Positions 9,877-29,301 of a stretch of 48,792 nucleotides of DNA are shown piece after piece. Positions within the stretch are counted from its first letter, which is position 1; every line of letters starts with the position of its first letter. This DNA comes from Caldilineales bacterium (GTDB lineage Bacteria; Chloroflexota; Anaerolineae; J102): positions 1 through 48,792 of the forward strand of contig JAIBAP010000007.1 in NCBI GenBank assembly GCA_019695115.1. Reading direction: 5' to 3'. A program made the position numbers and the translations under genes. The notes beneath the pieces are model-generated. The model saw nothing but the letters and a program-made list of their open reading frames with translations. It had not been told where the DNA came from and made no database searches.

Positions 9877-10113
9877 ATGGCACTTTCAGCCGATCAAACG
9901 TTGGATTGCACCGGCATGCTCTGCCCCATGCCGGTGGTCAAGACGACCAAGACAATCAGGGGCATGGAGGTTGGACAAGTGTTGAAGATGATTGCCACGG
10001 ATCCGGGCGCGCCGCCCGATATGGCGGCCTGGGCCCGGCAGACCGGCAATCTCATCCTACAGGAATCCCAAGAGGATGGAAAGTTCGTTTTCTTTATCAA
10101 GCGCGCCAAGTAA
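9877..10113 (+). CDS. tusA: TusA sulfur carrier protein
   Basis: The 78-residue protein has the TusA core: LDCTGMLCPMPVVKTTKTI at residues 9-27, with the CPxP motif whose Cys16 is the expected persulfide carrier, plus an extra Cys11 five residues before it. In sulfur oxidisers TusA receives sulfane sulfur from rhodanese or DsrE-type proteins and hands it towards Dsr or sHdr. Here it is the first gene of the locus, followed 33 bp later by a DsrE-family protein. An AGGAG ribosome site precedes the ATG. TusA homologues also serve tRNA thiolation, but the neighbours make sulfur oxidation the better reading. Confidence 0.92.
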   Translation: MALSADQTLDCTGMLCPMPVVKTTKTIRGMEVGQVLKMIATDPGAPPDMAAWARQTGNLILQESQEDGKFVFFIKRAK

Positions 10114-10146: not shown

Positions 10147-10668
10147 GTGACTCGATCCAATCCTGACGGCCCCAAACGCCTGGCCCTGATTGCCAGCAAA
10201 GGCACGCTGGACTGGGCCTATCCTCCCTTCATCCTGGCCACCGCCGGCGCGGCGATGGGCTGGGAGGTGGGCATGTTTTTCACCTTTTATGGCCTGCCCC
10301 TGCTCTGCCATGACATCAAGGCCGCGGTCTCGCCCCTGGGCAACCCGGCCATGCCAATGAAAATGCCCTTTGGCTCGCCCGGTTTCCAAAACATTGACTG
10401 GCCGATCCCCACCGTGCTGATGTCTGTGCCGGGGTTCAACGCCATGACCACCGGGCTGATGAAGAAGCAGTTCCACAACAAAGGCGTGGCCACGGTGGCA
10501 GAACTGCGCGACATGGCGGTGGATCTCGATGTCAAGTTGATCGGCTGCCAGATGACGATGGATGTCTTCGGTTTCAAGAAGGAAGACTTCATCGAGAGCT
10601 GCACGGTTGGCGGCGCGGCGATGTTCCTGGAGTTTGCCGCCGAGGCGGAAGTCTCGTTGTTTGTGTAA
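10147..10668 (+). CDS. DsrE-family sulfurtransferase (DsrE2/DsrE3-like)
   Basis: The 173-residue protein uses a GTG start after a GGAGG site. It has the DsrE fold signature: KRLALIASKGTLDWAYPPFI at the N-terminus, a long helical insertion, and LIGCQMTMDVFGF near residue 131 with Cys134, the probable persulfide-bearing residue; Cys54 and Cys152 are additional cysteines. No transmembrane helix is evident, unlike membrane DsrE2 forms, so DsrE3-type is more likely. Such proteins exchange sulfane sulfur with TusA and deliver it to the sHdr machinery. The exact subtype cannot be fixed without a tree. Confidence 0.85.
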   Translation: MTRSNPDGPKRLALIASKGTLDWAYPPFILATAGAAMGWEVGMFFTFYGLPLLCHDIKAAVSPLGNPAMPMKMPFGSPGFQNIDWPIPTVLMSVPGFNAMTTGLMKKQFHNKGVATVAELRDMAVDLDVKLIGCQMTMDVFGFKKEDFIESCTVGGAAMFLEFAAEAEVSLFV

Positions 10669-10863: not shown

Positions 10864-11262
10864 ATGTGGCGTGAACGCGAGGATGAAGATGTCAAGCGTG
10901 TCCTGTATGTGCAGACGCACGGCCGGGATACGCCCGAACGCAGCGCAACCCCCTTCTTTCTAGCCACGGCCGCTGCGGCCATGGACAACGAGGTCGCCAT
11001 CTATTTCACCATGAACGGGCCGCAGCTGCTGGCCCGGGGCGCGCCTGAAGCGATCATCGTGCCCAAGGCCGGGGGCGGGGGCAGAGCCTTGCGCTTCTTC
11101 ATTGACCAGGCGCTGGACATGGACGTGCGCTTGTTCGTCTGCCAGCCCTCGCTCGATCTGCACGGCTACACCATGGCCGACATGATCGAGGGCGTGGAGA
11201 TGATCGGCGGCGCCGCCTTCAACGACATGGCGCTGCGCGCCGACGCCGTGATCTCCTTCTGA
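10864..11262 (+). CDS. DsrE-family protein, second copy
   Basis: This 132-residue DsrE/F-like protein reads KRVLYVQTHGRDTPERSATP at residues 11-30, then FFLATAAAAMDNEVAIYFTM, the usual beta-alpha core, and RLFVCQPSLDLHGY near residue 89. Cys93 is the only cysteine and aligns with the persulfide Cys of the family. It is shorter than its upstream paralogue and lacks the insertion. With TusA and the first DsrE it makes a three-member relay before LbpA and sHdr. It starts at ATG with AAAGGAA upstream and ends two bases before the lbpA start. Confidence 0.85.
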   Translation: MWREREDEDVKRVLYVQTHGRDTPERSATPFFLATAAAAMDNEVAIYFTMNGPQLLARGAPEAIIVPKAGGGGRALRFFIDQALDMDVRLFVCQPSLDLHGYTMADMIEGVEMIGGAAFNDMALRADAVISF

Positions 11263-11264
11263 CC

Positions 11265-11747
11265 ATGTCCGAGTTTCGCATCCTGCGCAACTGCGTCTTG
11301 CCGTTGGGTCTCTATTACAAGATCGAAGAGCACATCTGGCTGCGGCTGGAGAGCGATGGCCTGGCCACCCTGGGTTTCACCGATGTGGCCCAAACCACCG
11401 CCGGCGGCATGTTGCACGTCACCTTCCGGGCGCTGGGCAAGTCGTATCCGGCCGGCAAGTCGGTGGCGGTGGTGGAGAGCGCCAAATGGCTGGGGTCGCT
11501 GCGCACCCCGGTGACTGGGACGCTGGCCGCGGTCAACGAGACGCTGCTGCAAGACGCCGGCCTGATCAACCGCAGCCCCTACCGCCGCGGCTGGGTGGTC
11601 AAGATGCAGCCCGATGACATCGCGGCCGACCTGCAGCGGCTGCGCACGGGCGATGCCGCGCTGGCGGCCTACGACGCCTTCATGGCTGCAAAGCGCCTGG
11701 ACGACTGCATCCACTGCGAAGGCTATGAGCTGCCCGATGGCCACTGA
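11265..11747 (+). CDS. lbpA: Lipoate-binding protein LbpA (copy 1)
   Basis: The 160-residue protein resembles glycine-cleavage protein H: LYYKIEEHIWLRLESDG, then VESAKWLGSLRTPVTG, where Lys74 is the expected lipoylation site, and NRSPYRRGWVVKM near the end of the barrel. No glycine-cleavage genes are nearby. It lies among shdr genes, where LbpA is the known partner of sHdr and carries the substrate sulfur on its dihydrolipoyl arm. Unusually it has a C-terminal extension with a CIHC motif (Cys148, Cys151). Copies 2 and 3 follow at 21.2-22.2 kb. The start is two bases after the preceding stop, implying coupling. Confidence 0.9.
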   Translation: MSEFRILRNCVLPLGLYYKIEEHIWLRLESDGLATLGFTDVAQTTAGGMLHVTFRALGKSYPAGKSVAVVESAKWLGSLRTPVTGTLAAVNETLLQDAGLINRSPYRRGWVVKMQPDDIAADLQRLRTGDAALAAYDAFMAAKRLDDCIHCEGYELPDGH

Positions 11748-11781
11748 CCCCGCCGCGCTGCGCTGCGAAGGAGGCGCCGAC

Positions 11782-12042
11782 ATGGTTGAGGTACGCGTCT
11801 TCACCCACCCCACCTGCTTCACTTGTCCGCAGGCCATTCGCCTGGCGCAGCGCCTGGCGGATGAAAACCCGCAGGTCAATTTGCAGATCATCTCCCTGGG
11901 CAGCGCCCGCGGCCGCGAGATCGCCAAATCGTTGCAGGTGCTGTCGGTGCCCACGGTCTTCGTGGGCGAAACCCGCTTTGTGGGCGTGCCCGACTGGGGG
12001 CAGCTCAAAGCCGCCGCCGACCTGGCAACGCACAGCGGCTGA
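11782..12042 (+). CDS. Small thioredoxin/glutaredoxin-fold redox protein
   Basis: This 86-residue protein has a thioredoxin-like fold: VRVFTHPTCFTCPQAIRLAQ at the N-terminus with a CxxC active site (Cys12, Cys15) and the cis-proline segment VLSVPTVFVGE. The length and motif fit Thioredoxin_3/glutaredoxin-like proteins. I start it at 11782 because AAGGAGG lies eight bases upstream; an in-frame ATG at 11737 overlapping lbpA would add 15 residues with no recognisable homology. Placed between lbpA and shdrC1, it may reduce or exchange persulfides or the lipoyl disulfide. That role is inference. Confidence 0.85.
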   Translation: MVEVRVFTHPTCFTCPQAIRLAQRLADENPQVNLQIISLGSARGREIAKSLQVLSVPTVFVGETRFVGVPDWGQLKAAADLATHSG

Positions 12043-12078
12043 CCCATGCCAACACGCAACCGTTTGAGGAGGTAACTT

Positions 12079-12789
12079 TTGGCTACGACTGCGCAAAACT
12101 GGAACCCCGGTAAGGTCACCGATAAGTACCCCAACGTCCCCTACGAGGAAAAACTGCGTTTATTCCAGGAAGTGAAGGCCGATGCCCGCTACGAGGACTA
12201 CCTCTATGGCTGCTACGAGTGCGGCATCTGCGTCTCGGCCTGCCCCTCGGCCCGCTTCTACGACTACAGCCCGCGCGTCATCACCCAAACCATGGCCCGC
12301 GAGGATGTCAATCGCATGTACGAGATCCTGGTCGAGGACATCTGGAACTGCGCCCAGTGCTTCTCCTGCGTGCGCTGCCCGCGCCAGAACAGCCCCGGCG
12401 GCCTGGTCACTCTGATCCGCGAGATCGCGGTGCGCAACGGCATCAAGGAGACCCGCGAGGTGCTGCAAGGCTACAGCCGAGTGATCTACAAGGTCATGCT
12501 CAAGGGCAACCAGGTCTCGCCCGACATGCTGCAGCCCGATTTCTTCCCCGATTGGGGCCCCTGGGTGCGTCAGTTCCAGGGCAACATGAACCTGTGGCGA
12601 CAAGCCATCCCCGTGGACAGCCTGCGCGGCGTCACCGACGCGGCCTGGAAGACCGACGAGCGCACCCTGCGCGAGCTCTACACGATCTGGTTCGAAACCG
12701 GCAACATCGAATTGATCGCCGAAGTGGATGAAGGGCTTTACGAACTGTTGCTGGATGTGATGCAAGAAGCGCTGGAGGAATGGGAATGA
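12079..12789 (+). CDS. shdrC1: sHdrC1, iron-sulfur subunit of the sHdr complex
   Basis: The 236-residue protein has two ferredoxin-type 4Fe-4S motifs, CYECGICVSACP (Cys45, 48, 51, 55) and CAQCFSCVRCP (Cys91, 94, 97, 100), followed by an all-helical C-terminal region, as in HdrC. It would pass electrons between HdrB-type clusters and HdrA flavin. The start is TTG, chosen because GAGGAGG lies just upstream and no ATG is available. It overlaps shdrB1 by a few bases. The order C1-B1-A-H immediately downstream identifies the sulfur-oxidising version, not the methanogenic enzyme. Confidence 0.9.
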   Translation: MATTAQNWNPGKVTDKYPNVPYEEKLRLFQEVKADARYEDYLYGCYECGICVSACPSARFYDYSPRVITQTMAREDVNRMYEILVEDIWNCAQCFSCVRCPRQNSPGGLVTLIREIAVRNGIKETREVLQGYSRVIYKVMLKGNQVSPDMLQPDFFPDWGPWVRQFQGNMNLWRQAIPVDSLRGVTDAAWKTDERTLRELYTIWFETGNIELIAEVDEGLYELLLDVMQEALEEWE

Positions 12790-14003
12790 CCATCTCGACC
12801 ACCATTGCCCTCGATGAACTGCTGGCCAAGAAATCTCGCACGGTGCAGCGCGACCCGGCCGAGGCGCCCACGCACGACCTGCGCGAGACGCTGTTCGAGC
12901 TGGAGGCCAAAGGCGAGCTGATCGTGCAGCGCGTGCCGGAGCCTTTTTTCGAGGTCAAAACCAAGTTCGGCCGCGTCAAGAAAATCCCGCTGGAGCACAC
13001 CTGGCACCACAAATCGTGCGGCCAGTGCGGCCACATCCCCGGCTACACCGGCTCCATCTTCTGGCTGCACCGCCAGTTTGGGCTGGATCATGTGGACCCG
13101 ACCGACCAGACCTCCTGCACCGGCTGGAATTACTACGCCTCTGGCACTTCCAACGCCGTGGCGCAGCTGGCGGTGATGTCGCGCAACTTCGCCGCCGCCT
13201 ACGAAACTGGCTACTACCCGCTGATCCACTGCGGCACCAGCTACGGGCACTACAAAGAGGCTCGCGAGGAGCTGATCCATCACAAGGAGATGCGCGATCA
13301 GGTGCGCCGTGTGCTCGACAAGCTGGGCAAGCCGCTGGTGGTGCCGGAGGAGATCGTGCACTACAGCGAGTGGGTGCACGCCATGCGCGACCGCATCGCC
13401 GCCCGCCAGCTGATTGACATGAGCCACCTCACCGCCTGCGTGCATCCCGCCTGCCACTACTACAAGATCGTGGCCGAGGATGCCATTTACGACGACGCCG
13501 TCTTCGGTGGGCAGCGCACCGCCACGGTCACGGCCACGGTGGAGGCGTTGGGCATCACCGCCGCCGACTACTCCACCTGGTTCGACTGCTGCGGCTTCGG
13601 CTTTCGGCACGTGCTGGTGCAGCGCGATTTCACCCGCTCGTTTGCGGTGCAGCGCAAGATTGATGTCATGAAGAACGAGATTGACCCCGATCTGGTCGTC
13701 ACCCATGACACCGGCTGCGTCACCACGCTGGACAAAAGCCAGTTCTCCGGCAAGGCGCACAACTTCAACGTGGGCGTGCCCGTGCTGTCCGACGCCCAGG
13801 TGGCGGCCCTGGCTATGGGCGCGCACCCCTTCCGCGTGGTGCAGCTGCACTGGCATTCCACCGATTGGCGGCCGCTGATGGACAAGCTGGGCATCAACTG
13901 GCAGGCGCACTGGGCCGAGTTCGAGGCCGACCTGGAAGCGATCCGCCGCGGCCAGAAGCGCGGCGTGACCTGGCAGGACACCGATCAGCTGACCGTTGCC
14001 TGA
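12786..14003 (+). CDS. shdrB1: sHdrB1, cysteine-rich (CCG-domain) subunit
   Basis: The 405-residue HdrB-like protein carries two cysteine-rich regions: Cys78, Cys81, Cys111 and Cys149 in the first, and Cys218, Cys223, the CC pair 268-269 (FDCCGFG) and Cys311 in the second. In HdrB such regions bind non-cubane 4Fe-4S clusters that act on disulfides. The first region lacks a CC pair and the second ends DTGC without the usual CxxC, so only one standard cluster site is evident; such divergence is expected in sHdr. The ATG at 12786 is preferred to the one at 12780 because GGAGGA ends six bases before it. Confidence 0.9.
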   Translation: MTISTTIALDELLAKKSRTVQRDPAEAPTHDLRETLFELEAKGELIVQRVPEPFFEVKTKFGRVKKIPLEHTWHHKSCGQCGHIPGYTGSIFWLHRQFGLDHVDPTDQTSCTGWNYYASGTSNAVAQLAVMSRNFAAAYETGYYPLIHCGTSYGHYKEAREELIHHKEMRDQVRRVLDKLGKPLVVPEEIVHYSEWVHAMRDRIAARQLIDMSHLTACVHPACHYYKIVAEDAIYDDAVFGGQRTATVTATVEALGITAADYSTWFDCCGFGFRHVLVQRDFTRSFAVQRKIDVMKNEIDPDLVVTHDTGCVTTLDKSQFSGKAHNFNVGVPVLSDAQVAALAMGAHPFRVVQLHWHSTDWRPLMDKLGINWQAHWAEFEADLEAIRRGQKRGVTWQDTDQLTVA

Positions 14004-14037
14004 CCCCGCTGGCTCAGGGCCGAAACCACTGATTCCA

Positions 14038-14096
14038 ATACGATTCCCGTTTTGCTCGATACGATTCCAGTTTTGCTCGATACGATTCCAGTTTAG
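14038..14096. repeat. 21-bp tandem repeat upstream of shdrA
   Basis: Two complete 21-bp units (14038-14058, 14059-14079; one mismatch) and a 17-base partial unit follow one another and stop next to the shdrA ribosome site. The core of each unit is ACGATTCC. The period is three times seven, like the heptamer arrays further right. It could influence shdrA translation through spacing or structure. Confidence 0.85.
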
Positions 14097-14108
14097 ATGG
14101 AGAAGACC

Positions 14109-15152
14109 ATGTCCAAGAACATCATGATTGTCGGCGGCGGCCCGGCCGGGCTGGAGGCGGCCCGCACCATCGCCGACCTGGGCTATCCCGCCATCCTGGT
14201 GGAGAAGCGCGCCCGCCTGGGCGGCACGCCGGATGAAGAGCAGTACGCCAAACTCACCCACCATTTTCGCGACGCCGAGGAGGCGATGGGCGAGATGGTC
14301 GCCGCGGCCAGCGGCCCCGGCGTGCAGGTTCTGACTAGCACGCGGGTGGTGGGCCTGGAAGGCGAGGCCGGCAACTTTCGGGTGACCGTGCAGAATGGCG
14401 GCGCCCCGCAGACCATCGAGGCCGGCGCCCTGATCCTGGCTACCGGCTTCAAGCACTTCGACCCCGGCCGCGAGACCCAATACTACAACTATTACAGCTA
14501 TCCCGACGTGATCACCATCGCCGACCTGGAAGGGATGCTGAAGGCGCACAAGGTGGTGCGGCTTTCCAACGGCGAGACGCCGAAACGGGTGGCGTTCATC
14601 CAATGCGTCGGCTCGCGCGACCGCCAGATCGGCAACGAGTACTGCTCGAAGGTCTGCTGCGGCATCGCCAGCAAACAGGCGATCGAAATCCGCCAGCTGC
14701 TGCCCGACACGCAGGTGTTCATCTTCTACATTGACATGCGCATGTACGGCTATTGGGAGAACGAGCTGTACTGGCCGGCGCAGGAGCAGTACAAAGTCAA
14801 CTACGTCAAGGGCCTGGCCAGCGAAATCCTGGCCAAAGGCGACCGCCTGTTGATCCGCGGCGAGGACACCACCATGAGCCGCCCGATGGAAGTGCTGGTG
14901 GACCTGGTGGTGCTGTCGGTGGGCATGGAGCCGAGCGACGGCACGCGTGAGATGGCCCGCGTGCTCGGCGTGACGCAGAACAAGTACGGTTTCATCGCCG
15001 CCGGCGGGCCGGGCGGCCTGGATCCGGTGGCGACCTCGCGGCCCGGCGTTTTCGTCGTCGGCGCCGCGGCCGGCCCCTCCGACATGGACGATTCCATCTC
15101 CACCGCCGGTCTGGCCGCGGCCCGCGCCGTCGCCCTGGTGCGCAGGCAGTAG
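14109..15152 (+). CDS. shdrA: sHdrA, FAD-binding subunit of the sHdr complex
   Basis: The 347-residue flavoprotein begins with IMIVGGGPAGLEAARTIADL (Rossmann motif GGGPAG, residues 9-14) and has an acidic end VEKRARLGG for FAD ribose. The HdrA iron-sulfur site is present as CVGSRD (Cys166) and YCSKVCC (Cys179, 183, 184). A second dinucleotide region ends in RPGVFVVGAAAGPSDMDDSI. It lacks the extra ferredoxin domains of methanogen HdrA, as expected of the short sulfur-oxidation type. ATG 14109 is preferred to ATG 14097 because GGAGAAG sits before it. This is the likely electron-branching centre, here paired with EtfAB. Confidence 0.92.
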   Translation: MSKNIMIVGGGPAGLEAARTIADLGYPAILVEKRARLGGTPDEEQYAKLTHHFRDAEEAMGEMVAAASGPGVQVLTSTRVVGLEGEAGNFRVTVQNGGAPQTIEAGALILATGFKHFDPGRETQYYNYYSYPDVITIADLEGMLKAHKVVRLSNGETPKRVAFIQCVGSRDRQIGNEYCSKVCCGIASKQAIEIRQLLPDTQVFIFYIDMRMYGYWENELYWPAQEQYKVNYVKGLASEILAKGDRLLIRGEDTTMSRPMEVLVDLVVLSVGMEPSDGTREMARVLGVTQNKYGFIAAGGPGGLDPVATSRPGVFVVGAAAGPSDMDDSISTAGLAAARAVALVRRQ

Positions 15153-15179
15153 TTTCAACTCTGAGACCGAGAGACGCGC

Positions 15180-16055
15180 ATGTCATTTGGCCAACGCTAC
15201 AGCCACATCGTCAAAGAGAAGACCGGCCCCGACGACCCGGAGCTGGCCGAGCTGCTGCAGCAGGCGATGGAGCAAGCCAGCCCGAAGCTGCTGGCCGAAA
15301 TGGCGGCGGAACTGTGGGCGCGGCGGCAGCAGTGGCTGCCCCGCCTCGACGGTCTGGAGGGCGCCAGCGCCCTTTTCCCGTCGCTGGCCCGCCTGACCAC
15401 CGCCAGCCGCCGCAACGCCGAGGCAGTGACGGCGCACCTCGGCCAGCACGGCCTGCCCGCCGTCGCCCCGCTGCTGCGCGGCGACGCCCCCGTCACGGCC
15501 CGCCTGGCCGCCTTCAGCGCCCAACTGCCCGGCCTGGAACCCCGCCTGCGCCTGGAACTGGCCACCGGCCTGCTGCACCTGGCCGACCCCGCCCAATACT
15601 GGCTGTGGACGCGCTGGCTGTGGGACGCCGGCAAGCAGAGCGGCATCCTGCCGCTGCTGGCCGGGGGCGTGCACCACTTCCAGGGGCTGGATCAGGGCGA
15701 CAGCTATCGGGCGGTGGGCGCGGTCACGGCCATGAGCATGCGTTTCGCCGAAGGCAGCGGCCTGCTGTCAGCGGATTTGCTGGAGCATCCCCACCGCTCC
15801 CCCTTTGCCGCCGATGTCTTTCTGGCGGCCGCCTACAGCATCTACATGTACGGCATCACCAGTTGGCGCCTGAGCCGCGAGTACAACCGCTTGCTGCCCA
15901 CCCTGCCCGATATGATGCGCAAGTTGCTCGGCCTTGCCAAACCGCCAGCGGCGCGGCCGGCCCAAGCGGCTCGAGCTCATAACGGAGATCGTGCAGATAG
16001 TGCAGATAGTGCAGATAGTGCAGATAATGGAGAAATGCCATGGACGCAGGACTAG
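15180..16055 (+). CDS. shdrH: sHdrH, conserved helical protein of the sHdr locus
   Basis: The 291-residue protein has no cofactor motif. It is mostly helical (LLQQAMEQASPKLLAEMAAE, then TARLAAFSAQLPGLEPRLRL) with no clear transmembrane segment. Its position between shdrA and the next cluster subunit is that of the formerly hypothetical gene shdrH. The last about 30 residues are a low-complexity tail, ADSADSADSADNG, encoded by four copies of a 9-bp repeat and unlikely to be part of the fold. It overlaps the following gene by 16 bases. The identification rests mainly on synteny; the molecular role of the family is not known to me. Confidence 0.75.
   Translation: MSFGQRYSHIVKEKTGPDDPELAELLQQAMEQASPKLLAEMAAELWARRQQWLPRLDGLEGASALFPSLARLTTASRRNAEAVTAHLGQHGLPAVAPLLRGDAPVTARLAAFSAQLPGLEPRLRLELATGLLHLADPAQYWLWTRWLWDAGKQSGILPLLAGGVHHFQGLDQGDSYRAVGAVTAMSMRFAEGSGLLSADLLEHPHRSPFAADVFLAAAYSIYMYGITSWRLSREYNRLLPTLPDMMRKLLGLAKPPAARPAQAARAHNGDRADSADSADSADNGEMPWTQD
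15991..16026 (+). repeat. 9-bp tandem repeat, four units, in the 3' end of shdrH
   Basis: GTGCAGATA is repeated four times without error and encodes the Asp/Ser/Ala tail of sHdrH. A change in copy number would lengthen or shorten the tail without a frameshift and alter the distance to the shdrB3 ribosome site. Confidence 0.95.
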
Positions 16056-17314
16056 ACAAAGTTGTCCGCATTTTGGAAAAAGAAACCGCCATCATTGATG
16101 GCGTGGACATCTCCGGTTCCTGGAACCGCATGTTCGAGCAGCGCGTGATCTGGGACTATACGCCGGAACTGATCGAGAAGATCACCGGCCAGCCGGGGGG
16201 CGAGTCCTTCGGCTGGTGCTACCAGTGCGCCTCCTGCACGCCCGTTTGCCCGGTGGACATGGTGGGCAGCTACGGCCCGCGACGCCTGTTTCGGGACGTG
16301 CAGACCGGAACCGACCTCTTCAGCGCCGATGACCTGTGGCTGTGCACCACCTGCGCCAACTGCCTGCGCGTCTGCAAAAAAGAGGTGGACATGGTGCAGA
16401 TCATGCCGGCGGTGCGCCAGCAGGCGGTCTTGAACGGGTTCGTGCCGGAGGAGCTGCAAAAGGCGTTCGAGGACACCGCCAGGTTCGGCAACCCCCTGGG
16501 CCAGCCGCAGCGCAAGCGCGCCGCCTGGACCAAACAGGCCGAGGTGGAGGTGCCGATCCTGAAGGACCTGGGCCGCGGGGTCGAGGTGCTCTGGTATGTC
16601 GGCTCCTACCCTTCCTATCACCCGCGCGGGATTGACGCCTCCGCCGCCGCCGCCCGCATCTTCCACGCCCTGGGCGTGGATTACGGCATCCTCGGCAACG
16701 AGGAGAAGGACGACGGCGATTCGCAGCGCCTGGCCGGCGAAGCGGGCCTCTTCGAGATGCTGGCCGAGCACAACATCGAGATGTTCCAGAAGTATGACTG
16801 GCAAACCCTGGTGGTGAGCGGGCCGCACGAGTACAACGCCTTCAAGACCCAGTATCCCAAGATGGGCTTCGAGCGCCCGGTGCAGCATTACACGCAGTTT
16901 CTGGCCAGCCAGCTCGAGCGGCTGCGCCCGCTGCTGCAACGCCCGCTGCCCCTGCGCGTCACCTTCCACGACCCCTGCTACCTGGGCCGGCATCATGGCG
17001 AATACGACGCGCCGCGGGCCTTGCTGCGGGCCATCCCCGGCCTGGAGCTGGTGGAGATGGGCCGCTGCCGCGAGAACGGCTACTGTTGCGGCGGCGGCGG
17101 CGGCGGCATGTGGCTCGATTCCTTCAGCGCCAACCACACCACCATGCGCCTCTCGGAAAAGCGGGTGATGGAGGCCGCGGCCAGCGGCGCCGACGTCCTG
17201 GCCGTCTGCTGTCCCTTCGAGGTCTCCCGCTTCGAGGACGCGGCCAAGAACACCGGCAACGGCCACCTGCGCGTGCTCGACATCCTGGAACTGCTGGATA
17301 TGTCAATGCGCTAG
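16040..17314 (+). CDS. shdrB3: sHdrB3, HdrC-HdrB-like fused iron-sulfur subunit
   Basis: The 424-residue protein joins two 4Fe-4S ferredoxin motifs (CYQCASCTPVCP, Cys60-70; CTTCANCLRVCK, Cys102-112) to a CCG-type region. The C-terminal CCG repeat is complete in outline: HDPCYLGR, then GYCCGGGGGGMW about 35 residues later, then VCCPFE. The first repeat has lost its cysteines (LWYVGSYPSYHPR). This HdrD-like layout directly before etfBA and emo is the B3 subunit that replaces separate C2 and B2 subunits in type II sHdr loci. It probably links the sHdr core to the electron-transfer flavoprotein. Confidence 0.88.
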   Translation: MDAGLDKVVRILEKETAIIDGVDISGSWNRMFEQRVIWDYTPELIEKITGQPGGESFGWCYQCASCTPVCPVDMVGSYGPRRLFRDVQTGTDLFSADDLWLCTTCANCLRVCKKEVDMVQIMPAVRQQAVLNGFVPEELQKAFEDTARFGNPLGQPQRKRAAWTKQAEVEVPILKDLGRGVEVLWYVGSYPSYHPRGIDASAAAARIFHALGVDYGILGNEEKDDGDSQRLAGEAGLFEMLAEHNIEMFQKYDWQTLVVSGPHEYNAFKTQYPKMGFERPVQHYTQFLASQLERLRPLLQRPLPLRVTFHDPCYLGRHHGEYDAPRALLRAIPGLELVEMGRCRENGYCCGGGGGGMWLDSFSANHTTMRLSEKRVMEAAASGADVLAVCCPFEVSRFEDAAKNTGNGHLRVLDILELLDMSMR

Positions 17315-17366
17315 AAAAAAGCTCAACTTCGCCCAGAAGTCGAACTTTTGCTCAGGAGAAAGACCC

Positions 17367-18134
17367 ATGAACATTGTTGTGACGCTCAAACACATCCCCA
17401 GCCTGGCCGATGAGCTGCCGCTCAACGCCAAAGGCGCCAACCTCGACTTCGACGAGGTGGATTTCGTGCTCAACGAATTCGACGAGCAGGCGCTGGAACA
17501 GGCCGTGCTGGTCAAGGAGAGCAGCGGCGGCGCGGTGACGGCGCTCGGCGTTGACCTGATCGAAGAACTGGACGACGTGCTGTATACCGCCCTGGCCAAA
17601 GGCGCCGACAAAGCCTGCAAGATCGTGGGCGATGTGCAGCCGGGGCTGGATTCGCACACCCACGCCGCCTGGCTGGCCGCGGCCATCCGCGACCTGGCGC
17701 CCGACCTGGTGCTGACCGGCGTGCAGGCGGCCGACGACCTCGACGGCCAGATCGGCCCCATGCTGGCCGCCCATCTGGACATGCCCTACATCGGCGTCGT
17801 GACCGGGCTGGAAGTGAGCGGGGGCGTGGTCACGGTGCACAAAGAGTTCGCCGGGGGCATCGTTGCCGCCATCGAGGTGGATTTGCCCTGCGTGGCCGGC
17901 ATCCAGGCTGCCGAAAAGCCGCCGCGCTACGCGCCGATCAGCAAGATCCGCCAGATCGCCAAGACCGCCAGGATCGAAGAGATCGAGGCTGCCGAGGAGG
18001 CCCCCGGCGCCGGCGTCACCCTGCGCCGCCTGTCCAAACCCCAGGTTACGGGGCGGGCGCAGATGCTGGAGGGGAACGCCAAACAGGCGGCCGCCCGCAT
18101 CATCGCCATCATCACCGAGCGAGGTTTACTATGA
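17367..18134 (+). CDS. etfB: Electron transfer flavoprotein beta subunit
   Basis: The 255-residue protein matches EtfB: N-terminal MNIVVTLKHIPS, FVLNEFDEQALEQAV, and the nucleotide-binding segment VLTGVQAADDLDGQIGPMLA (about residues 113-132). The C-terminal arm that embraces EtfA is present. Its gene overlaps etfA by four bases (ATGA), so the two are co-translated. In this locus the Etf pair would accept electrons from the sHdr complex and pass them to the membrane oxidoreductase at 19143-21227, not act with acyl-CoA dehydrogenases, none of which are in the window. Confidence 0.93.
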   Translation: MNIVVTLKHIPSLADELPLNAKGANLDFDEVDFVLNEFDEQALEQAVLVKESSGGAVTALGVDLIEELDDVLYTALAKGADKACKIVGDVQPGLDSHTHAAWLAAAIRDLAPDLVLTGVQAADDLDGQIGPMLAAHLDMPYIGVVTGLEVSGGVVTVHKEFAGGIVAAIEVDLPCVAGIQAAEKPPRYAPISKIRQIAKTARIEEIEAAEEAPGAGVTLRRLSKPQVTGRAQMLEGNAKQAAARIIAIITERGLL

Positions 18135-19084
18135 GCCAGGACATTCTCGTCGTCGCCGAACATCTGGACGGCAAGATCGCCGACATCTCCTTCGAGATGA
18201 CCGGCAAGGCCAGGGAGCTGGCTGCGGCCCTGGGCGGGCGGGTCAGCGTCCTGCTGTTGGGCAGCGGGATGGAGGCGCAGGCGGCCGGCTTCGCCGCCGA
18301 CGCCACGCTCTATCTCGATGACCCGCGGCTGGCCCACTACAACCCCCAGGCCTACCAGCGGGTGATTGCCGCCGTGGTCGCCGAACGTGCGCCGCGGCTG
18401 GTCATGCTCGGCTACTCCTCGGTCGGCATGGATGTGGCGGCCTGGCTGTCGGTCAAGAGTGAGCGGCCCTGCATCGCCTACGTCAATCAGCTGGCGGTCG
18501 AAAATGGCGCCATCGTCGCCCGCAGCCAATTGTACGGCGGCAAGCTGACCGCCGAGAGCGCGCCGCAGGGCAAAAACCTCATCGTCACCATCATGGCCGG
18601 GGCCTTTGCCGCCGAGGCGGGGCGCGGCGCCGCCCCTGTGCAGGCCATCGCCGCGCCGATCGCTCTGGACGGCCTGCGCACGCGCTTCGTCGAGCTGATT
18701 AAGCCGGAGGCGGGCGATGTGGACATCACCGCCGAGGAGAAGCTGGTGGCGGTGGGCCGCGGCGTCGGCGGGGCAGAGGGCGTGGAGCTGGCCGGGGAGT
18801 TGGCCGAGGCGCTGGGCGCGGTGGTGGCCGCGTCACGCCCCGTGACCGACGCCGGTTGGCTGCCGAAGAGCCGGCAGGTGGGCAAGTCGGGCCTGACCGT
18901 GCGGCCCAAGCTCTACCTGATGTTGGGCATCTCCGGCGCGCCGGAGCACCTGGAAGGCATGAAGGACGCCGATCTGATCATCGCCGTCAACAGCGACGCC
19001 AACGCCCCCATCTTCAACGTCGCCCATTACGGCGCCACGCAAGACCTGTTCGAAGTGGCCGAGGCGATGTTGGCGGCTTTGTAG
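18131..19084 (+). CDS. etfA: Electron transfer flavoprotein alpha subunit
   Basis: The 317-residue protein has the EtfA C-terminal FAD domain: AVGRGVGG, VVAASRPVTDAGWLPKSRQV, LYLMLGISGAPEHLEGM and DADLIIAVNSDANAPIF in order, and HYGATQDLFEVAEAM at the end. The common GAIQH segment reads GAPEH here, a small difference near the flavin. The N-terminal domain is typical. It starts at the ATGA overlap with etfB. Whether the pair can bifurcate electrons cannot be decided by eye; type II sHdr context favours simple transfer to menaquinone via EMO. Confidence 0.93.
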   Translation: MSQDILVVAEHLDGKIADISFEMTGKARELAAALGGRVSVLLLGSGMEAQAAGFAADATLYLDDPRLAHYNPQAYQRVIAAVVAERAPRLVMLGYSSVGMDVAAWLSVKSERPCIAYVNQLAVENGAIVARSQLYGGKLTAESAPQGKNLIVTIMAGAFAAEAGRGAAPVQAIAAPIALDGLRTRFVELIKPEAGDVDITAEEKLVAVGRGVGGAEGVELAGELAEALGAVVAASRPVTDAGWLPKSRQVGKSGLTVRPKLYLMLGISGAPEHLEGMKDADLIIAVNSDANAPIFNVAHYGATQDLFEVAEAMLAAL

Positions 19085-19090
19085 AGGCCG

Positions 19091-19121
19091 GAAGTTCAAC
19101 TTCTGAGAGAAGTTGAACTTC
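19091..19121. repeat. Perfect 13-bp inverted repeat between etfA and emo
   Basis: GAAGTTCAACTTC (19091-19103), a 5-nt loop, then its exact reverse complement (19109-19121). Each arm is itself palindromic around its centre. Variants of the GAAGTT/AACTTC core also occur at 17323-17349 and 21685-21698. It could be a transcript-processing hairpin or a dispersed repeat. Confidence 0.9.
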
Positions 19122-19142
19122 TCGTTTCAAGGAGATGCGACT

Positions 19143-21227
<2,085 letters not shown>

Positions 21228-21242
21228 CCACGGAGGCGAGCG

Positions 21243-21680
21243 ATGGCAAAAGCGACGAAGTGCGAGATTCCTGCTGACCTGTACTACTGGATCAAAGAGC
21301 ACGTGTGGGTGCGCCGGGAGGAGGATGGCAGCGTCACCATTGGCATGACCGACGCCGCCCAACACATCGCCGGCGTGGTGATCAACGCCATGCCCAAGAA
21401 GGCGGGCCGCGGCGTGCAGAAGGGGCGCAGCACCGGCACGGTAGAGAGCGGCAAGTGGGTCGGCCCAGTCAAGGCGCCCGTTTCGGGTCAGATCATCGCC
21501 GCCAACGAGACCCTGGCCAGCACGCCCCGAGCGCTGAACGAAGACCCCTACGGCAGCGGCTGGTTCGTGCGCATCCAGCCGGACAACTGGGCAGGCGAGA
21601 GCGCCGACCTGGTCAGCGGCGCCGACGGCGCAGCCGCCTATCGCCAGTTTTTGGAGGATGAAGGCATCGCTTGCGAGTAG
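21243..21680 (+). CDS. lbpA: Lipoate-binding protein LbpA (copy 2)
   Basis: The 145-residue GcvH-like protein has LYYWIKEHVWVRREEDGSVT, the lipoyl motif TVESGKWVGPVKAPVSG with Lys71, and NEDPYGSGWFVRI. It keeps Cys7 near the N-terminus and a Cys at position 144 near the C-terminus, both outside the lipoyl motif. It starts 15 bases after emo and has a good GGAGG site. Of the three copies it has the most canonical length and is the best candidate for the main sHdr substrate carrier. That ranking is inference. Confidence 0.92.
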   Translation: MAKATKCEIPADLYYWIKEHVWVRREEDGSVTIGMTDAAQHIAGVVINAMPKKAGRGVQKGRSTGTVESGKWVGPVKAPVSGQIIAANETLASTPRALNEDPYGSGWFVRIQPDNWAGESADLVSGADGAAAYRQFLEDEGIACE

Positions 21681-21758
21681 ATGAAGTTTCAACTTCTTGA
21701 GTGAGCGAAAAAAATTCGTGCAGATCCGTGCAATTCGTGGCAGAAAACGGGAAAACGT

Positions 21759-22208
21759 GTGATTTACTACGGCTGCGACATCCCCGAAGACCTGCATTAC
21801 CACCCCGAATACGACTGCTGGGTGCGTTTCGACGGCCCGGACACGGCCACATTGGGCATGACCGACGTGGCCCAGACGCTGGCCGGCAAGCTGCTGTTCG
21901 TGCGCTTCAAGCAGCCGGGCCGCGTGATCCAGGCCGGGCGCATCGCCGCCACCATCGAGAGCGGCAAGTGGATCGGCCCCTTCAAGATGCCGTTCGACGC
22001 CGAACTGCTGGCGGTGAACGAGACCGCCTTTCAAGCGGACAGCGCCATCGCCAACCGCGACCCCTACGGCGCCGGCTGGCTGGTCAAGGTGCGTCTGCTG
22101 CACCCCGAGGCGGCCCGCGCCCTGCTGCTCAGCGGCGCGGCGGCGACAGCCTTCCTGCGCGAGAAGATTGAACGCAACCGCATCCGCTGCTTTCGCTGCG
22201 CCGATTGA
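21759..22208 (+). CDS. lbpA: Lipoate-binding protein LbpA (copy 3)
   Basis: The 149-residue GcvH-like protein starts at GTG and has Cys6, a lipoyl motif ATIESGKWIGPFKMPF with Lys70, and NRDPYGAGWLVKV. The C-terminus ends RCFRCAD, a CxxC (Cys143, Cys146) resembling the one in copy 1 and absent from copy 2. The spacer from copy 2 contains a fragment of the dispersed repeat found at 10797-10815. The three copies are clearly paralogous but not recent duplicates, so they may be loaded differently or interact with different sHdr subunits. Confidence 0.88.
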   Translation: MIYYGCDIPEDLHYHPEYDCWVRFDGPDTATLGMTDVAQTLAGKLLFVRFKQPGRVIQAGRIAATIESGKWIGPFKMPFDAELLAVNETAFQADSAIANRDPYGAGWLVKVRLLHPEAARALLLSGAAATAFLREKIERNRIRCFRCAD

Positions 22209-22438: not shown

Positions 22439-23518
22439 ATGTCTCGCACCATTCGTTTGCTTGATCTTGGCGAGGTGGCGCCGCTGCGCTCGCAGACCGT
22501 CTACCACACCGCGGCCTATGCCCTGACCGAGGACAGCCCCGATACGATCATCCTGGTCAGCCCGCAGACGCCCTACGTGTGCATCGGCTACCATCAGGAT
22601 TTGGAGAAGGAAGTAGACCTGGCCTATTGCCGGGAGCATGGGCTGCCGGTCTACCGCCGCGAGGTGGGGGGCGGCGCCGTCTATCTCGACCGCGGCCAGA
22701 TCTTCACGCAGTGGGCCTTCCACCGCGATCGCCTGCCCGCCGCGCTGGAGGCGCGCTTCGACCTCTACATCCGCCCGCTGGTGGAGACCTACCGGGCCCT
22801 GGGCATCGAGGCCTACCACCGCCCCATCAACGACATCCACGTCGCCGGCAAGAAGATCGGCGGCACCGGCGCCGCCCAGATGGGCGTCGCCGAGGTGGTG
22901 GTGGGCAGCCTGATGCTGACCTTCGACAAGGCCACCATGGCCAAGGTGCTCAAAGTCCCCTCGGAGAAGATGCGCGACAAGATCTTCGAGAGCCTGGAGC
23001 AGTACATGACCACCATCCAGGAGCAGTTGGGCCAGCTGCCCCCGCGCCAGGAGGTGAAAGACCTGTACGTGCAGAAGTGCCGCCAAATCCTGGGGGTCGA
23101 GATCGTGCCGGGCGCGTGGACGGAAGAGGAAGAAAGCCTGGCCGCCGAACTCGACGCCCGCTTCGCCTCGGAAGAATGGCTGTTCCAGCAGGGCCGCCTG
23201 CGCCAGCCGGGCGTCAAGATCCACAGCGATGTGCAGGTGGTGGAGAAGGCGTTCAAGGCCCCCGGCGGCCTCATCCGTGTGGTCGCCCGCCTGCGCGAGG
23301 GCCGCATTGACGACCTCAGCCTCAGCGGCGACTTCACCCTGCTGCCCTCCTTTGCCCTGGGCGCGCTGGAGCAGGCGGTGCGCGGCCTCAGCGCCCGGCG
23401 CGACTCCCTCACCGCCCGCCTGCAGGAGGCCTACCAGCGTCTGGGCATTCAGTCGCCGGGCGTGACGCCGGCCGATTTCGCCACCGCCATCCTGGCCGCC
23501 GCCGACGCGCAGGGTTGA
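22439..23518 (+). CDS. Two-domain lipoate-protein ligase for LbpA (sLpl-type)
   Basis: The 359-residue protein has the lipoate ligase core: VYRREVGGGAVYLDRGQ (residues 71-87, the lipoyl-AMP loop) and NDIHVAGKKIGGTGAAQ with Lys139 as the expected catalytic lysine. The C-terminal part (about 270-345), with VEKAFKAPGGLIRVVARLRE, is the accessory LplB-like domain fused to the ligase. Ligases of this fused kind in shdr loci load lipoate or octanoate on LbpA specifically. No lipoyl synthase is in the window. ATG 22439 has AAAGGAGA upstream; the longer frame would only translate the repeat block. Confidence 0.88.
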   Translation: MSRTIRLLDLGEVAPLRSQTVYHTAAYALTEDSPDTIILVSPQTPYVCIGYHQDLEKEVDLAYCREHGLPVYRREVGGGAVYLDRGQIFTQWAFHRDRLPAALEARFDLYIRPLVETYRALGIEAYHRPINDIHVAGKKIGGTGAAQMGVAEVVVGSLMLTFDKATMAKVLKVPSEKMRDKIFESLEQYMTTIQEQLGQLPPRQEVKDLYVQKCRQILGVEIVPGAWTEEEESLAAELDARFASEEWLFQQGRLRQPGVKIHSDVQVVEKAFKAPGGLIRVVARLREGRIDDLSLSGDFTLLPSFALGALEQAVRGLSARRDSLTARLQEAYQRLGIQSPGVTPADFATAILAAADAQG

Positions 23519-23527: not shown

Positions 23528-25099
23528 ATGAACTATGGCTTCGTAATTGACAACCGCAAATGCATCGGCTGCCACGCCTGCTCGGTCGCCTGCAAGAGCG
23601 AGAACGGCGTGCCCCTGGGCGTCTATCGCACCTGGGTCAAATACGTCGAGACCGGCCAGTTTCCCGACACCCGCCGCCACTTCCAGGTCACGCGCTGCAA
23701 TCACTGCGCCAACCCGCCCTGCGTGCGCATCTGCCCGGTGGCGGCCATGTACCAGCGGCGCGATGGCATCGTTGAGTTCGACCCCAGCGTCTGCATCGGC
23801 TGCAAAGCCTGCATGCAGGCCTGCCCCTACGAGGCCATCTACATTGACCCCGACAGCCACACCGCGGCAAAATGTCATTACTGCGCCCACCGCGTCGAAA
23901 TCGGGCTGGAGCCTTCGTGCGTGGTCGTCTGCCCGGAGCACGCCATCCTCGCCGGCGACCTCGACGACCCCGACTCGGAGATCAGCCGCACGCTGGCCAG
24001 CAACCGCGTGGCCGTGCGCAAACCCGAACAGGGCACGCGGCCCAAGCTGTTCTACATCGAAGGCACCCACTGGAGCTTGCACCCCACCGCCACCGCGGAC
24101 AGCCCCGCCACCTTCCTCTGGGCCGATGTACTGCCGCGGCATGGCCAGGCGGACGCGGGTCATGCCCCCAGCCAGCCCGCCAACGGGCGCCCGCAGTCGG
24201 CGGGGCAGACGGCGCAGGTGGCCTACAACGCCCAGCACAAGATCCCCTGGCACTGGCCGGTGCCCGCCTATCTGGTGACCAAAGCCGTGGCCACGGGCAG
24301 CTTCATCGCCCTGGCCCTGGCGGCGGGGCTGGGGCTGGCGACCTTCCACGCTCCCACCTTCCTGCTGGGCGGCTTCCTCTCGCTGCTCTTCACGCTGATC
24401 ACCACGCTGTTCCTCGTCCTCGATCTCGAACATCCCCGCCGTTTTCTCCTCATCCTGACGCGGCCGCAGTGGCGCAGCTGGTTGACGCGGGGCGCCTTCA
24501 TCCTGATCGGCTTTACCATCGTCGCCGGGGTGTGGTGGCTGCTGGAGGCGGCAACCAGCCTGCGCTGGCTGCCCCCTGATCTGGCGGCGACGCTGCGCCC
24601 CGCCTTGCTCTGGACGGGCGCGCTGCTGGCGGCGGGCGGCGCCGCCTACACCGCCTTCCTGTTCGGCCAGGCCGAGGGCCGCGACCTGTGGCAGAGCAGC
24701 TTGCTGCCCCTGCATCTGCTGGTGCAGGCGGGGCTGGCCGGCAGCGGTCTGCTGGCGATCATGGGGCTGTTGGCGCCGCCGCCGGCCGATTTCGCCGGAT
24801 TCGTGCGCGTCTTCTTCCTGGCCATGCTGCTGCTCGACCTGGCGCTGACCCTGGTGGGCGAGTTTGGCATGTCGCACGCCAGCGAGGTCGCGGCCCGCGC
24901 CGCCCATGCCATCCGCCGCGGCCGCTACCGCCGGCATTTCTGGCTGGGCGGCATCGGCCTGGGCCGCCTGCTGCCCCTGGCCCTGCTCCTGGTCAATGCG
25001 CCCCTGGCCAGCGCCCTGGCCGCCGTGGCCGCCATCGCTGGCCTCTTCGTCTACGAGTACATTTTCATCATGGCCCCGCAAGAAATCCCCAATTCCTGA
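23528..25099 (+). CDS. soeBC: SoeB-SoeC fusion: four-cluster ferredoxin joined to an NrfD/PsrC-type membrane subunit
   Basis: The 523-residue protein has four 4Fe-4S sites in residues 12-135 (CIGCHACSVAC at 12-22; CNHCANPPCVRIC at 57-69; CIGCKACMQAC at 89-99; Cys116, 119, 131, 135), typical of electron-transfer subunits of DMSO-reductase-family enzymes. A Pro/Gly/Gln-rich linker (about 205-235) leads into a domain of about eight helices (240-515) with WHWPVPAYLVTKAVATG and DLEHPRRF, NrfD/PsrC signatures for quinone binding. In most relatives these are two genes. There is no Tat signal, so the cluster domain is cytoplasmic. With the next gene it forms a complete sulfite-dehydrogenase-like complex. 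Confidence 0.88.
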   Translation: MNYGFVIDNRKCIGCHACSVACKSENGVPLGVYRTWVKYVETGQFPDTRRHFQVTRCNHCANPPCVRICPVAAMYQRRDGIVEFDPSVCIGCKACMQACPYEAIYIDPDSHTAAKCHYCAHRVEIGLEPSCVVVCPEHAILAGDLDDPDSEISRTLASNRVAVRKPEQGTRPKLFYIEGTHWSLHPTATADSPATFLWADVLPRHGQADAGHAPSQPANGRPQSAGQTAQVAYNAQHKIPWHWPVPAYLVTKAVATGSFIALALAAGLGLATFHAPTFLLGGFLSLLFTLITTLFLVLDLEHPRRFLLILTRPQWRSWLTRGAFILIGFTIVAGVWWLLEAATSLRWLPPDLAATLRPALLWTGALLAAGGAAYTAFLFGQAEGRDLWQSSLLPLHLLVQAGLAGSGLLAIMGLLAPPPADFAGFVRVFFLAMLLLDLALTLVGEFGMSHASEVAARAAHAIRRGRYRRHFWLGGIGLGRLLPLALLLVNAPLASALAAVAAIAGLFVYEYIFIMAPQEIPNS

Positions 25100-25120
25100 G
25101 CCAGGTCTGGAACAAGCACC

Positions 25121-27934
<2,814 letters not shown>

Positions 27935-27981: not shown

Positions 27982-29049
27982 CTACCGTCGCAGTTGGCGC
28001 CGCATCCTGTCGAACACATCCACCCCCATTTGCAGCAAGAGGTGGGGGATGTCGAACGGAATCCAGTTCTCGACGATCGTTTCCTCGTCGCAGCGGTAGA
28101 AATCCATCACCCGCATCGCCAGCCGCTTGCCCGTGGGCGGCATGCCCAAGAAGCCGCCGCCCGTGTGTGTGGCCTGCACATAGCCCCAGCCGCCCGTCAC
28201 CGCATAGTCGCCATCGCCGATGCGGATGAAGTGGCCGATGGCGCTGCCGCCGCGGTCGGGGAAGGCCACCAGAAAGGGGATCTGGTGGTAGTCTTCGAAG
28301 CCCTTCAACCCGCGCGTCGTCCCGATCCCGGCTGGCCCGGAATACATGAAATGGGGATGCCAGTGCTTGACCATCTCCATCGCGTCCAAAGCAGCGCGGG
28401 TAGGTGGGCCGCCGGGGAATTGGTGCAGCGCCGCGTGCATACGCAACACCCGCTCGATCGCGCGCTGTGAGAGGGCGTTGTCTTGCGGGCTGAGGATGAC
28501 GCCGTCGTGCGTGGCCGGTGGGAGCCAGCGCATCTCCTGGCCCAGGCTGGGCGCCAGCGGCCAGCAGCCGGCCTGCCGCATCAGGTCGAGGAAATCGATG
28601 AAGACATAGCTGGCGGCGATCTTGCCCTCGCGCAGTTCGTGGCCCTCGGCGAAGCGCACGGCCACCACGCCGCGCGTGGCCGGGATGCCCAGCCAATCGT
28701 GCTCGAACGTGCCCACGTAGTGCCCACTGCAGCCAATCCAGTGAGCGCCGCGGTAGCGACCGCCGGCCACGATGTCGTGGCGCCGCTCGAGGTCGGGCAG
28801 CGCCCGCCGCAGCGGCCGCCAGAGTTGCTCAGTCACTGCGGCGAGGTCGCTCAGTTCGTCGAGCGGATGCGTCACCTTCACGCCGGCGCCGGCGTGATAG
28901 CCTGCCGCCACGGCGTCGGCCAGGTCCGCCTCGCCCGCGTCCACGAGCGATTGCATGATCGCGATCAGCCGTCGCTTGTTGGCGATGTTTTCCGTCTGAT
29001 CGACGGCTTCGAAAACGTAACCGGGTGGGTTGGTTCTGTTGTTGGTCAT
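27982..29049 (-). CDS. Tandem SnoaL-like (NTF2-fold) protein, copy 1
   Basis: The 355-residue protein contains two SnoaL/NTF2-fold domains (about 40-165 and 195-345). Each has the hallmark pattern of a helix followed by a curved sheet: HWIGCSGHYVGTFEHDWLGI and FYRCDEETIVENWIPFDIPH are typical. SnoaL-type proteins are polyketide cyclases or uncharacterised hydrolases/isomerases acting on small hydrophobic or sugar-like substrates. There is no signal peptide. It is the last gene of the leftward run and a neighbour of a similar protein at 29302-30315. Substrate and reaction are unknown. Confidence 0.8.
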   Translation of the reverse strand: MTNNRTNPPGYVFEAVDQTENIANKRRLIAIMQSLVDAGEADLADAVAAGYHAGAGVKVTHPLDELSDLAAVTEQLWRPLRRALPDLERRHDIVAGGRYRGAHWIGCSGHYVGTFEHDWLGIPATRGVVAVRFAEGHELREGKIAASYVFIDFLDLMRQAGCWPLAPSLGQEMRWLPPATHDGVILSPQDNALSQRAIERVLRMHAALHQFPGGPPTRAALDAMEMVKHWHPHFMYSGPAGIGTTRGLKGFEDYHQIPFLVAFPDRGGSAIGHFIRIGDGDYAVTGGWGYVQATHTGGGFLGMPPTGKRLAMRVMDFYRCDEETIVENWIPFDIPHLLLQMGVDVFDRMRRQLRR

Positions 29050-29103
29050 ATCGCTTGATCCTTTATGGATGGCTAGCTAAAGAAATGATACTCGGTACTG
29101 AAA

Positions 29104-29158: not shown

Positions 29159-29301
29159 GTTTATGACCTTCATCACAAATCAACCTAGCGATCCATAGTT
29201 GGTTTGTGATCGAGGCCGAAGCTGCTTGCTTGGGGCCTGACGAAGGGTGAAGTGCGGAGCGTGAGCAGGCGAGGAGGAACGATGCCCTTGAACCTGGCGC
29301 C

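What the first reader, a model, noticed from the sequence alone, without database searches (positions are those of the whole stretch)
11265..22208. Three divergent LbpA carriers, two with C-terminal CxxC motifs
Copies at 11265, 21243 and 21759 all keep the lipoyl lysine but differ elsewhere. Copies 1 and 3 end with CIHC and RCFRC; copy 2 lacks a CxxC but keeps Cys7 and Cys144. Extra thiols next to the lipoyl arm could bind sulfur or a metal, or form disulfides, suggesting that different carriers serve different sHdr steps.
Basis: partly seen in the sequence, partly recalled or inferred. Interest (0 to 1): 0.6.

Follow-up and report, generated by a model that had tools for sequence, protein, structure and literature searches.

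The report
Three sulfur-carrier paralogs with distinct thiol tails
This Chloroflexota bacterium carries a known type of sulfur-oxidising operon (type II sHdr) with three lipoate-carrier proteins, and comparison across phyla shows that each carrier type has its own fixed set of tail cysteines, one of them inherited together with a small thioredoxin-like gene, which suggests that the three carriers do different jobs.

Summary
Three GcvH-like LbpA genes lie in a type II sHdr cluster (tusA, dsrE, dsrE, lbpA-a, trx, shdrC1-B1-A-H-B3, etfBA, emo, lbpA-b, lbpA-c, lplA). All three keep the lipoyl lysine and the N-terminal plus C-terminal cysteine already known as LbpA hallmarks (PMC6067878), so copy 2 is canonical. 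Copies 1 and 3 add one more cysteine: CxHCEG[YF]E in LbpA-a and CxRC in LbpA-c. In about 80 type II loci from at least seven phyla, CxxC occurs in 37/37 LbpA-c, 27/31 LbpA-a, 0/44 LbpA-b and 0/30 GcvH. A tree built without the tails recovers the same groups. lbpA-a travels with the adjacent thioredoxin-like gene: both 27 loci, neither 37, trx alone 0. Four of the five lbpA-a-position genes lacking trx have lost the second cysteine. Three LbpA copies in such clusters were already known. The type-specific dithiols and the lbpA-a/trx cassette were not found described in the open-access papers searched. My best reading is that LbpA-a and LbpA-c carry redox-active dithiol tails, LbpA-a's served by the thioredoxin-like protein. 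Function is inferred, not shown; type I LbpAs could not be sampled.

The parts
9877..10113 (+). tusA-like sulfur carrier, 78 aa
   Evidence: Pfam TusA E 3.6e-22
10147..10668 (+). dsrE2-like sulfur carrier, 173 aa
   Evidence: Pfam DrsE_2 E 1.2e-44; NCBIfam SulfCarrDsrE2 203.5 bits against a cut-off of 210
10864..11262 (+). dsrE-like sulfur transferase, 132 aa, immediately upstream of lbpA-a
   Evidence: Pfam DsrE E 8.9e-18
11265..11747 (+). lbpA-a: lipoate-binding protein, 160 aa; N-Cys10, lipoyl Lys74, tail C148-I-H150-C151-E-G-Y-E
   Evidence: Pfam GCV_H; Cys10 and Cys148 invariant in 43 LbpAs; tail motif conserved
11782..12042 (+). thioredoxin-like gene, 86 aa, CFTC; linked cassette partner of lbpA-a
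   Evidence: Pfam Thioredoxin_3 32.8 bits, cut-off 24.8; CxxC in 31/31 relatives; co-occurrence
12079..12789 (+). shdrC1, Fe-S electron carrier subunit
   Evidence: HdrC models, synteny
12780..14003 (+). shdrB1, CCG-type catalytic subunit
   Evidence: HdrB models; used to fetch 78 type II loci
14097..15152 (+). shdrA, FAD/Fe-S subunit
   Evidence: HdrA models
15180..16055 (+). shdrH-position protein of unknown function
   Evidence: no family match; conserved in synteny
16040..17314 (+). shdrB3 (fused C2/B2 type)
   Evidence: Fer4 plus CCG domains
17367..18134 (+). etfB
   Evidence: EtfB models
18131..19084 (+). etfA
   Evidence: EtfA models
19113..21227 (+). emo-like membrane Fe-S/CCG quinone oxidoreductase
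   Evidence: CCG plus Fer4 domains
21243..21680 (+). lbpA-b: lipoate-binding protein, 145 aa; N-Cys7, single C-terminal Cys144, no CxxC
   Evidence: Pfam GCV_H; b-type clade
21759..22208 (+). lbpA-c: lipoate-binding protein, GTG start, 149 aa; N-Cys6, tail C144-F-R-C147
   Evidence: Pfam GCV_H; c-type clade with CxRC in 37/37
22439..23518 (+). lplA-like lipoate:protein ligase
   Evidence: Pfam LplA-B_cat E 2.2e-37; follows lbpA-c in most type II loci

Best explanation
The three genes encode three old, separately maintained LbpA paralogs of a type II sHdr sulfur-oxidation system. Each is a GcvH-fold carrier with a lipoyl-lysine arm. Each has the LbpA-specific N-terminal cysteine and a tail extending past the GcvH C-terminus with the other conserved cysteine. 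LbpA-a (CxHC) and LbpA-c (CxRC) carry one more cysteine, giving a dithiol tail that can cycle between disulfide and dithiol or hold a persulfide; LbpA-b carries only a single thiol. The tail of LbpA-a is most likely reduced or relieved of sulfur by the thioredoxin-like protein encoded directly downstream. LbpA-a would then act on the sulfur-input side, between DsrE/TusA and sHdr, and LbpA-b and LbpA-c at the sHdr/EtfAB-EMO side. Shown: three orthologous types, conserved type-specific cysteines, and co-inheritance of lbpA-a with trx. Inferred: lipoylation, dithiol chemistry, the Trx partnership and the order of action.
For: Same gene order with three LbpAs and the same tails in related genomes. 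Across type II loci, CxxC in 37/37 c-type, 27/31 a-type, 0/44 b-type, and N-Cys in all 112. A tree built without tail and N-Cys columns separates the types: b 95/89, c 94/80, a with 2 changes; labels need 2 changes in all, which is the minimum. lbpA-a and trx: both 27 loci, neither 37, trx alone 0, lbpA alone 5; four of those five have lost the second Cys. Seven changes of the cassette on the HdrB1 tree; in 5 well-supported independent pairs trx goes the same way in 4.6 on average and never the opposite way. Trx relatives keep FTHPxCxxC and a VPT-type proline. GcvH fold at Z 20.4 to pea H-protein, model residues 10-143 matching pea 1-131, so the tail is an addition.
Against: No biochemical data. 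The sign test on independent pairs reaches only p = 0.0625. L129 (Myxococcota) keeps CTHC without a neighbouring trx. LbpA-c keeps its CxRC in more than ten operons that lack lbpA-a and trx, so the c tail does not need this trx. An operon-borne trx could serve TusA or DsrE instead. LbpA-b has lost its C-terminal Cys in one Anaerolineales clade, so the tail thiol is dispensable in at least one type.
Confidence: 0.5

Rival explanations
1. The extra cysteines build a metal site. In LbpA-a, C10, C148, H150 and C151 could bind zinc or a cluster; LbpA-c would use C6, C144 and C147.
For: LbpA-a has three Cys and one His in the conserved set; AlphaFold gives an ordered tail (mean pLDDT 91 for residues 141-150).
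Against: In LbpA-c the His is replaced by Arg, which is not a usual metal ligand, and only three Cys are conserved. The second Cys tends to go with a thioredoxin-like gene, which points to redox chemistry.
Confidence: 0.15
2. The tails are docking or recognition elements (for sHdr, EMO, DsrE or the LplA-like ligase), and the second Cys has no redox role.
For: The whole tail of LbpA-a (DDCxHCEGYE) is conserved, not only the cysteines, and each type keeps its own place in the operon.
Against: The c-type tails conserve little more than the CxRC, and the loss of the second Cys coincides with absence of trx.
Confidence: 0.2
3. Plain redundancy: duplicated carriers kept for dosage or substrate channelling, as proposed for LbpA1/LbpA2 in 2018, with tail differences being lineage markers.
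For: PMC6067878 argues for gene duplication and channelling and saw no Cys differences between LbpA1 and LbpA2; some lineages manage with one or two copies.
Against: Motifs are fixed per type over several phyla, on a tree that does not use them.
Confidence: 0.15

Closest known systems
sHdr-associated lipoate-binding protein LbpA (Hyphomicrobium denitrificans LbpA2, Thioalkalivibrio LbpA1/LbpA2; PMC6067878)
   Same: GcvH-like carrier, lipoyl lysine, N-terminal and C-terminal Cys absent from GcvH, genes inside an sHdr cluster next to an LplA-like ligase.
   Different: Three paralogs with type-specific tails; LbpA-a and LbpA-c have a second tail Cys. The 2018 paper reports no Cys differences between LbpA1 and LbpA2.
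Type II sHdr / Group III clusters with EtfBA and two or three LbpAs (PMC6067878, PMC11582611); Thermomicrobium roseum 19-gene cluster with three lbpA genes, upregulated on average 45-fold in persistence (PMC6776052)
   Same: Same gene set and the same number of LbpAs.
   Different: I found no mention in the searchable papers of type-specific Cys tails or of an lbpA-a/trx cassette.
Glycine cleavage H protein (GcvH)
   Same: Fold (Z about 20) and lipoyl lysine.
   Different: GcvH E14, which holds the aminomethyl arm, is replaced by other residues in nearly all; GcvH S67 is Gly in nearly all a, b and c types; GcvH lacks the N-Cys and the tail.
SoxY C-terminal GGCGG swinging arm (comparison made in PMC6067878)
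   Same: Carrier with a thiol near the C-terminus on a flexible end.
   Different: Different fold and compartment; single Cys, not a dithiol; resemblance only.
Sulfobacillus hdr clusters with a thioredoxin and GcvH-like genes (PMC4378227, figure 4 legend)
   Same: Thioredoxin and gcsh genes drawn in hdr loci.
   Different: The part of that paper read here gives no function or partner for the thioredoxin; the Sulfobacillus type II loci held here have b and c types and no trx.

Membership tests
sHdr lipoate-binding protein LbpA | GCV_H domain with lipoyl lysine | tested here: met
   Pfam GCV_H for all three; ES[AG]KW lysine in the sequence
sHdr lipoate-binding protein LbpA | one N-terminal and one C-terminal Cys that GcvH lacks | tested here: met
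   Cys10 and Cys148 (LbpA-a numbering) invariant in 43 aligned LbpAs; all three copies have both
sHdr lipoate-binding protein LbpA | gene inside an sHdr cluster | tested here: met
sHdr lipoate-binding protein LbpA | lipoylated by the cluster's LplA-like ligase and required for sulfur oxidation | not testable with these tools
   ligase gene present at 22439-23518; modification and phenotype need experiments
[quoted passage not shown]
   all genes in order at 12079-19084; the H-position gene is assigned by position only
Type I LbpA1 or LbpA2 | falls within the LbpA1 or LbpA2 clade | tested here: inconclusive
   no type I reference sequence could be fetched; the genome-contig scan was centred on type II sHdrB1
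Glycine cleavage H protein (GcvH) | NCBIfam gcvH equivalog TIGR00527 cut-off of 115.85 bits | tested here: not met
   80.3, 85.6 and 64.9 bits; copy 2 does exceed the broader PRK01202 subfamily cut-off (124.1 against 117)
Glycine cleavage H protein (GcvH) | cavity residues that hold the aminomethyl-lipoate arm (E. coli E12/E14, S67) | tested here: not met
   E14 position is V, A, I, S, T or similar and S67 position is Gly in nearly all LbpAs (residue roles from PMC7733448)
Thioredoxin/glutaredoxin family (partner gene 11782-12042) | CxxC active site and Thioredoxin domain | tested here: met
   Pfam Thioredoxin_3 32.8 bits, cut-off 24.8; CxxC in 31/31

The most novel reading that the evidence does not exclude
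Type II sHdr systems use functionally specialised lipoyl carriers: LbpA-a with a CxHC tail forms a dedicated lipoyl-dithiol-thioredoxin relay for loading or releasing sulfur, while LbpA-c with its CxRC tail works directly with the sHdrB1 disulfide centre. An Acidithiobacillus plasmid carries an LbpA-c-type protein, an sHdrB1-like protein and a thioredoxin as a detached module without any other annotated sHdr subunit.
Probability: 0.3. Interest if true: 0.7.

Novelty: new variant of a known kind. Interest (0 to 1): 0.5.

Why it matters
The 2018 paper that discovered LbpA calls the reason for multiple LbpAs unexplained and saw no cysteine differences between its types. The conserved type-specific dithiols and the lbpA-a/trx cassette found here give a concrete, testable reason: different tail chemistry and a candidate dedicated partner. 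Thermomicrobium relatives held here have the same set, and a Thermomicrobium roseum cluster with three lbpA genes is strongly induced in starvation, so a cultivable system exists.

Tried and rejected
Chance CxxC: rejected (0/30 GcvH of relatives). Genuine GcvH: rejected by bit scores, tree placement and cavity residues. 'LbpA-b is degenerate because it lacks CxxC': rejected; it has the canonical pair. A universal rule that every operon has a CxxC LbpA: rejected by the Calditrichota/Bacteroidota-type loci (L105, L107, L116, L132), which have a single-Cys LbpA. 'LbpA-b loses its C-terminal Cys when lbpA-a is absent': not strict (L098 has lbpA-a but NFE; L094, L095 and L109 lack lbpA-a but keep Cys). 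Type I LbpA references: the plasmid searches found only the Acidithiobacillus module, and the genome search could not be centred on a Pseudomonadota genome. A viral scan gave three GcvH-like loci without these tails.

Full report
Observation. All match GCV_H and keep the lipoyl lysine. The tails read CIHCEGYE, GIACE and IRCFRC.

Setting. The cluster is tusA, dsrE2, dsrE, lbpA-a, trx, shdrC1-B1-A-H-B3, etfBA, emo, lbpA-b, lbpA-c, lplA-like. This meets the published definition of a type II sHdr system (shdrC1B1AHB3 plus etfAB in one cluster; PMC11582611). Two or three LbpAs in such clusters are known ('Group III', PMC6067878). Thermomicrobium roseum has three lbpA genes in a 19-gene cluster induced on average 45-fold in persistence (PMC6776052). 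The window's genome has five GCV_H genes in all, three of them here, a lipA and a dihydrolipoyl dehydrogenase elsewhere, and two LplA/B-type genes, one of them in this cluster.

Conservation. In same-family genomes the same order recurs with the same tails. A genome-contig scan with sHdrB1 returned 78 type II loci from Chloroflexota, Thermomicrobiota, Armatimonadota, Bacillota, Neomarinimicrobiota (Fidelibacterota), Calditrichota, Bacteroidota, Myxococcota, Actinomycetota and archaea. From these, over 110 LbpAs were extracted. Every a-, b- and c-type protein has the N-terminal Cys (112/112). The first tail Cys (C148 in LbpA-a) is invariant in a 43-member alignment of chosen sequences, but the full set shows it lost in one Anaerolineales clade of LbpA-b (tails such as QNLNFE; 26/44 b-type keep a Cys in the last 12 residues, and one b-type row is a broken copy). 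So the statement in PMC6067878 that the C-terminal Cys is strictly conserved does not extend to those MAGs. The second tail Cys is type-specific: c-type 37/37 (C[FLMI]RC), a-type 27/31 (CxHC[EA]G), b-type 0/44, GcvH of relatives 0/30.

Phylogeny. Trees built only on the core columns, without tails or the N-Cys, separate the motif types. Quick tree: the Chloroflexota/Thermomicrobiota/Armatimonadota a-type 100, the Fidelibacterota/Myxococcota/archaeal a-type 99, c-type 87, b-type 90. Careful tree of 111 rows: b 95/89, c 94/80, a with two changes, and the three labels together need the minimum of two changes. There are few columns and many rows, so deep order is unsure.

The lbpA-a/trx cassette. 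Between dsrE and shdrC1, 27 loci have both genes (one of them, L115, with a broken lbpA-a), 37 have neither, and none has trx alone (one row of the table, L076, was miscounted because ORFs were sorted by their stop-to-stop start, and it has both genes). Five loci have an LbpA there without trx. In four of these (L105, L107, L116, L132) the second Cys is gone (ACDHIE, ACEHIE, ACEQIE); the fifth (L129, Myxococcota) keeps CTHC. On an sHdrB1 tree the cassette changes seven times. Among five independent well-supported pairs, trx follows lbpA-a in 4.6 on average and never goes the other way, but five pairs cannot reach significance (p 0.0625). The trx relatives share FTHPxCxxC and a VPT-type proline. 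The Sulfobacillus type II loci held here have b and c types but no trx. An earlier paper names a thioredoxin gene in the legend of its Sulfobacillus hdr-cluster figure; the part of its sulfur section I read gives it no role (PMC4378227).

Structure. AlphaFold gives LbpA-a the GcvH fold with mean pLDDT 93.7, and LbpA-c likewise 94.2. LbpA-a aligns with pea H-protein at Z 20.4, model residues 10-143 on pea 1-131. So Cys10 falls at the GcvH N-terminus, and C148, H150 and C151 lie in an added tail. Residues that hold the loaded arm in E. coli GcvH (E14, S67; PMC7733448) are replaced in nearly all LbpAs, S67 by Gly. Distances between the cysteines and the lipoyl lysine could not be measured.

Interpretation. 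Shown: three long-maintained LbpA types, type-specific tail cysteines, and co-inheritance of lbpA-a with trx. From established work: LbpA is lipoylated by a cluster ligase and is essential in H. denitrificans (PMC6067878, PMC10332631, both type I). Inferred: the CxHC and CxRC tails are redox-active or persulfide-carrying dithiols, the Trx-like protein serves LbpA-a, and the carriers act at different steps. The order of action is suggested only by gene position. Metal binding, docking and plain redundancy remain open, with the weights given.

Limits. The scan patterns came from Chloroflexota sHdrB1, so type II is favoured and type I LbpAs are absent from the comparison. Most loci are MAG contigs. 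The claim that the tail types and the cassette are undescribed rests on the open-access papers searched here, and supplementary alignments could not be read; the 2018 figure supplement may show some of these tails.

Noticed in passing
L134 1-4490 (Acidithiobacillus ferrooxidans plasmid pACF1): A detached module: thioredoxin-like (CPVC), hemerythrin, an LbpA ending QCMRC (LbpA-c type) and an sHdrB1-like protein (52% identical to the window's), near hcp, NnrS and globin genes, with no other sHdr subunit annotated on the plasmid.
   Followed up: partly
LbpA-b of L063, L064, L066, L072, L073, L083, L084, L088, L090, L092, L096, L098-L100, L102, L104, L128: One Anaerolineales clade has lost the C-terminal Cys of LbpA-b (tails such as QNLNFE), contrary to the published statement of strict conservation.
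   Followed up: partly
L090:11628-12086, L099:19998-20453, L107:10868-11326, L110, L112, L116, L125, L126:5588-6043(-), L127: A fourth, Cys-less GcvH-like type (tails such as GWID) next to small lipoyl-ligase-like ORFs in some sHdr loci; it may be a lipoyl relay or a different carrier.
   Followed up: no
window 23528-27934: A Fer4-NrfD fusion and a molybdopterin oxidoreductase directly downstream of the sHdr cluster, similar in make-up to membrane-anchored sulfite-oxidising (SoeABC-like) or polysulfide/tetrathionate enzymes; a candidate for the next step after sulfite.
   Followed up: no
L036 8578-9027 (G000:C40), with similar genes at L044, L054 and L055: A divergent GcvH-like protein without the tail Cys and with an ETVKV or similar lysine motif, in this genome and three other genomes of its class.
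   Followed up: no
L045 3678-5700 and L046 4806-8791: Small clusters with tusA, dsrE genes, an HdrB3-like fragment and an LbpA ending ISCA or ISCQ; no match to the other sHdr core subunits in the stretches held.
   Followed up: no
window 27982-30315: Two adjacent genes each with a SnoaL-like domain, of unknown role.
   Followed up: no
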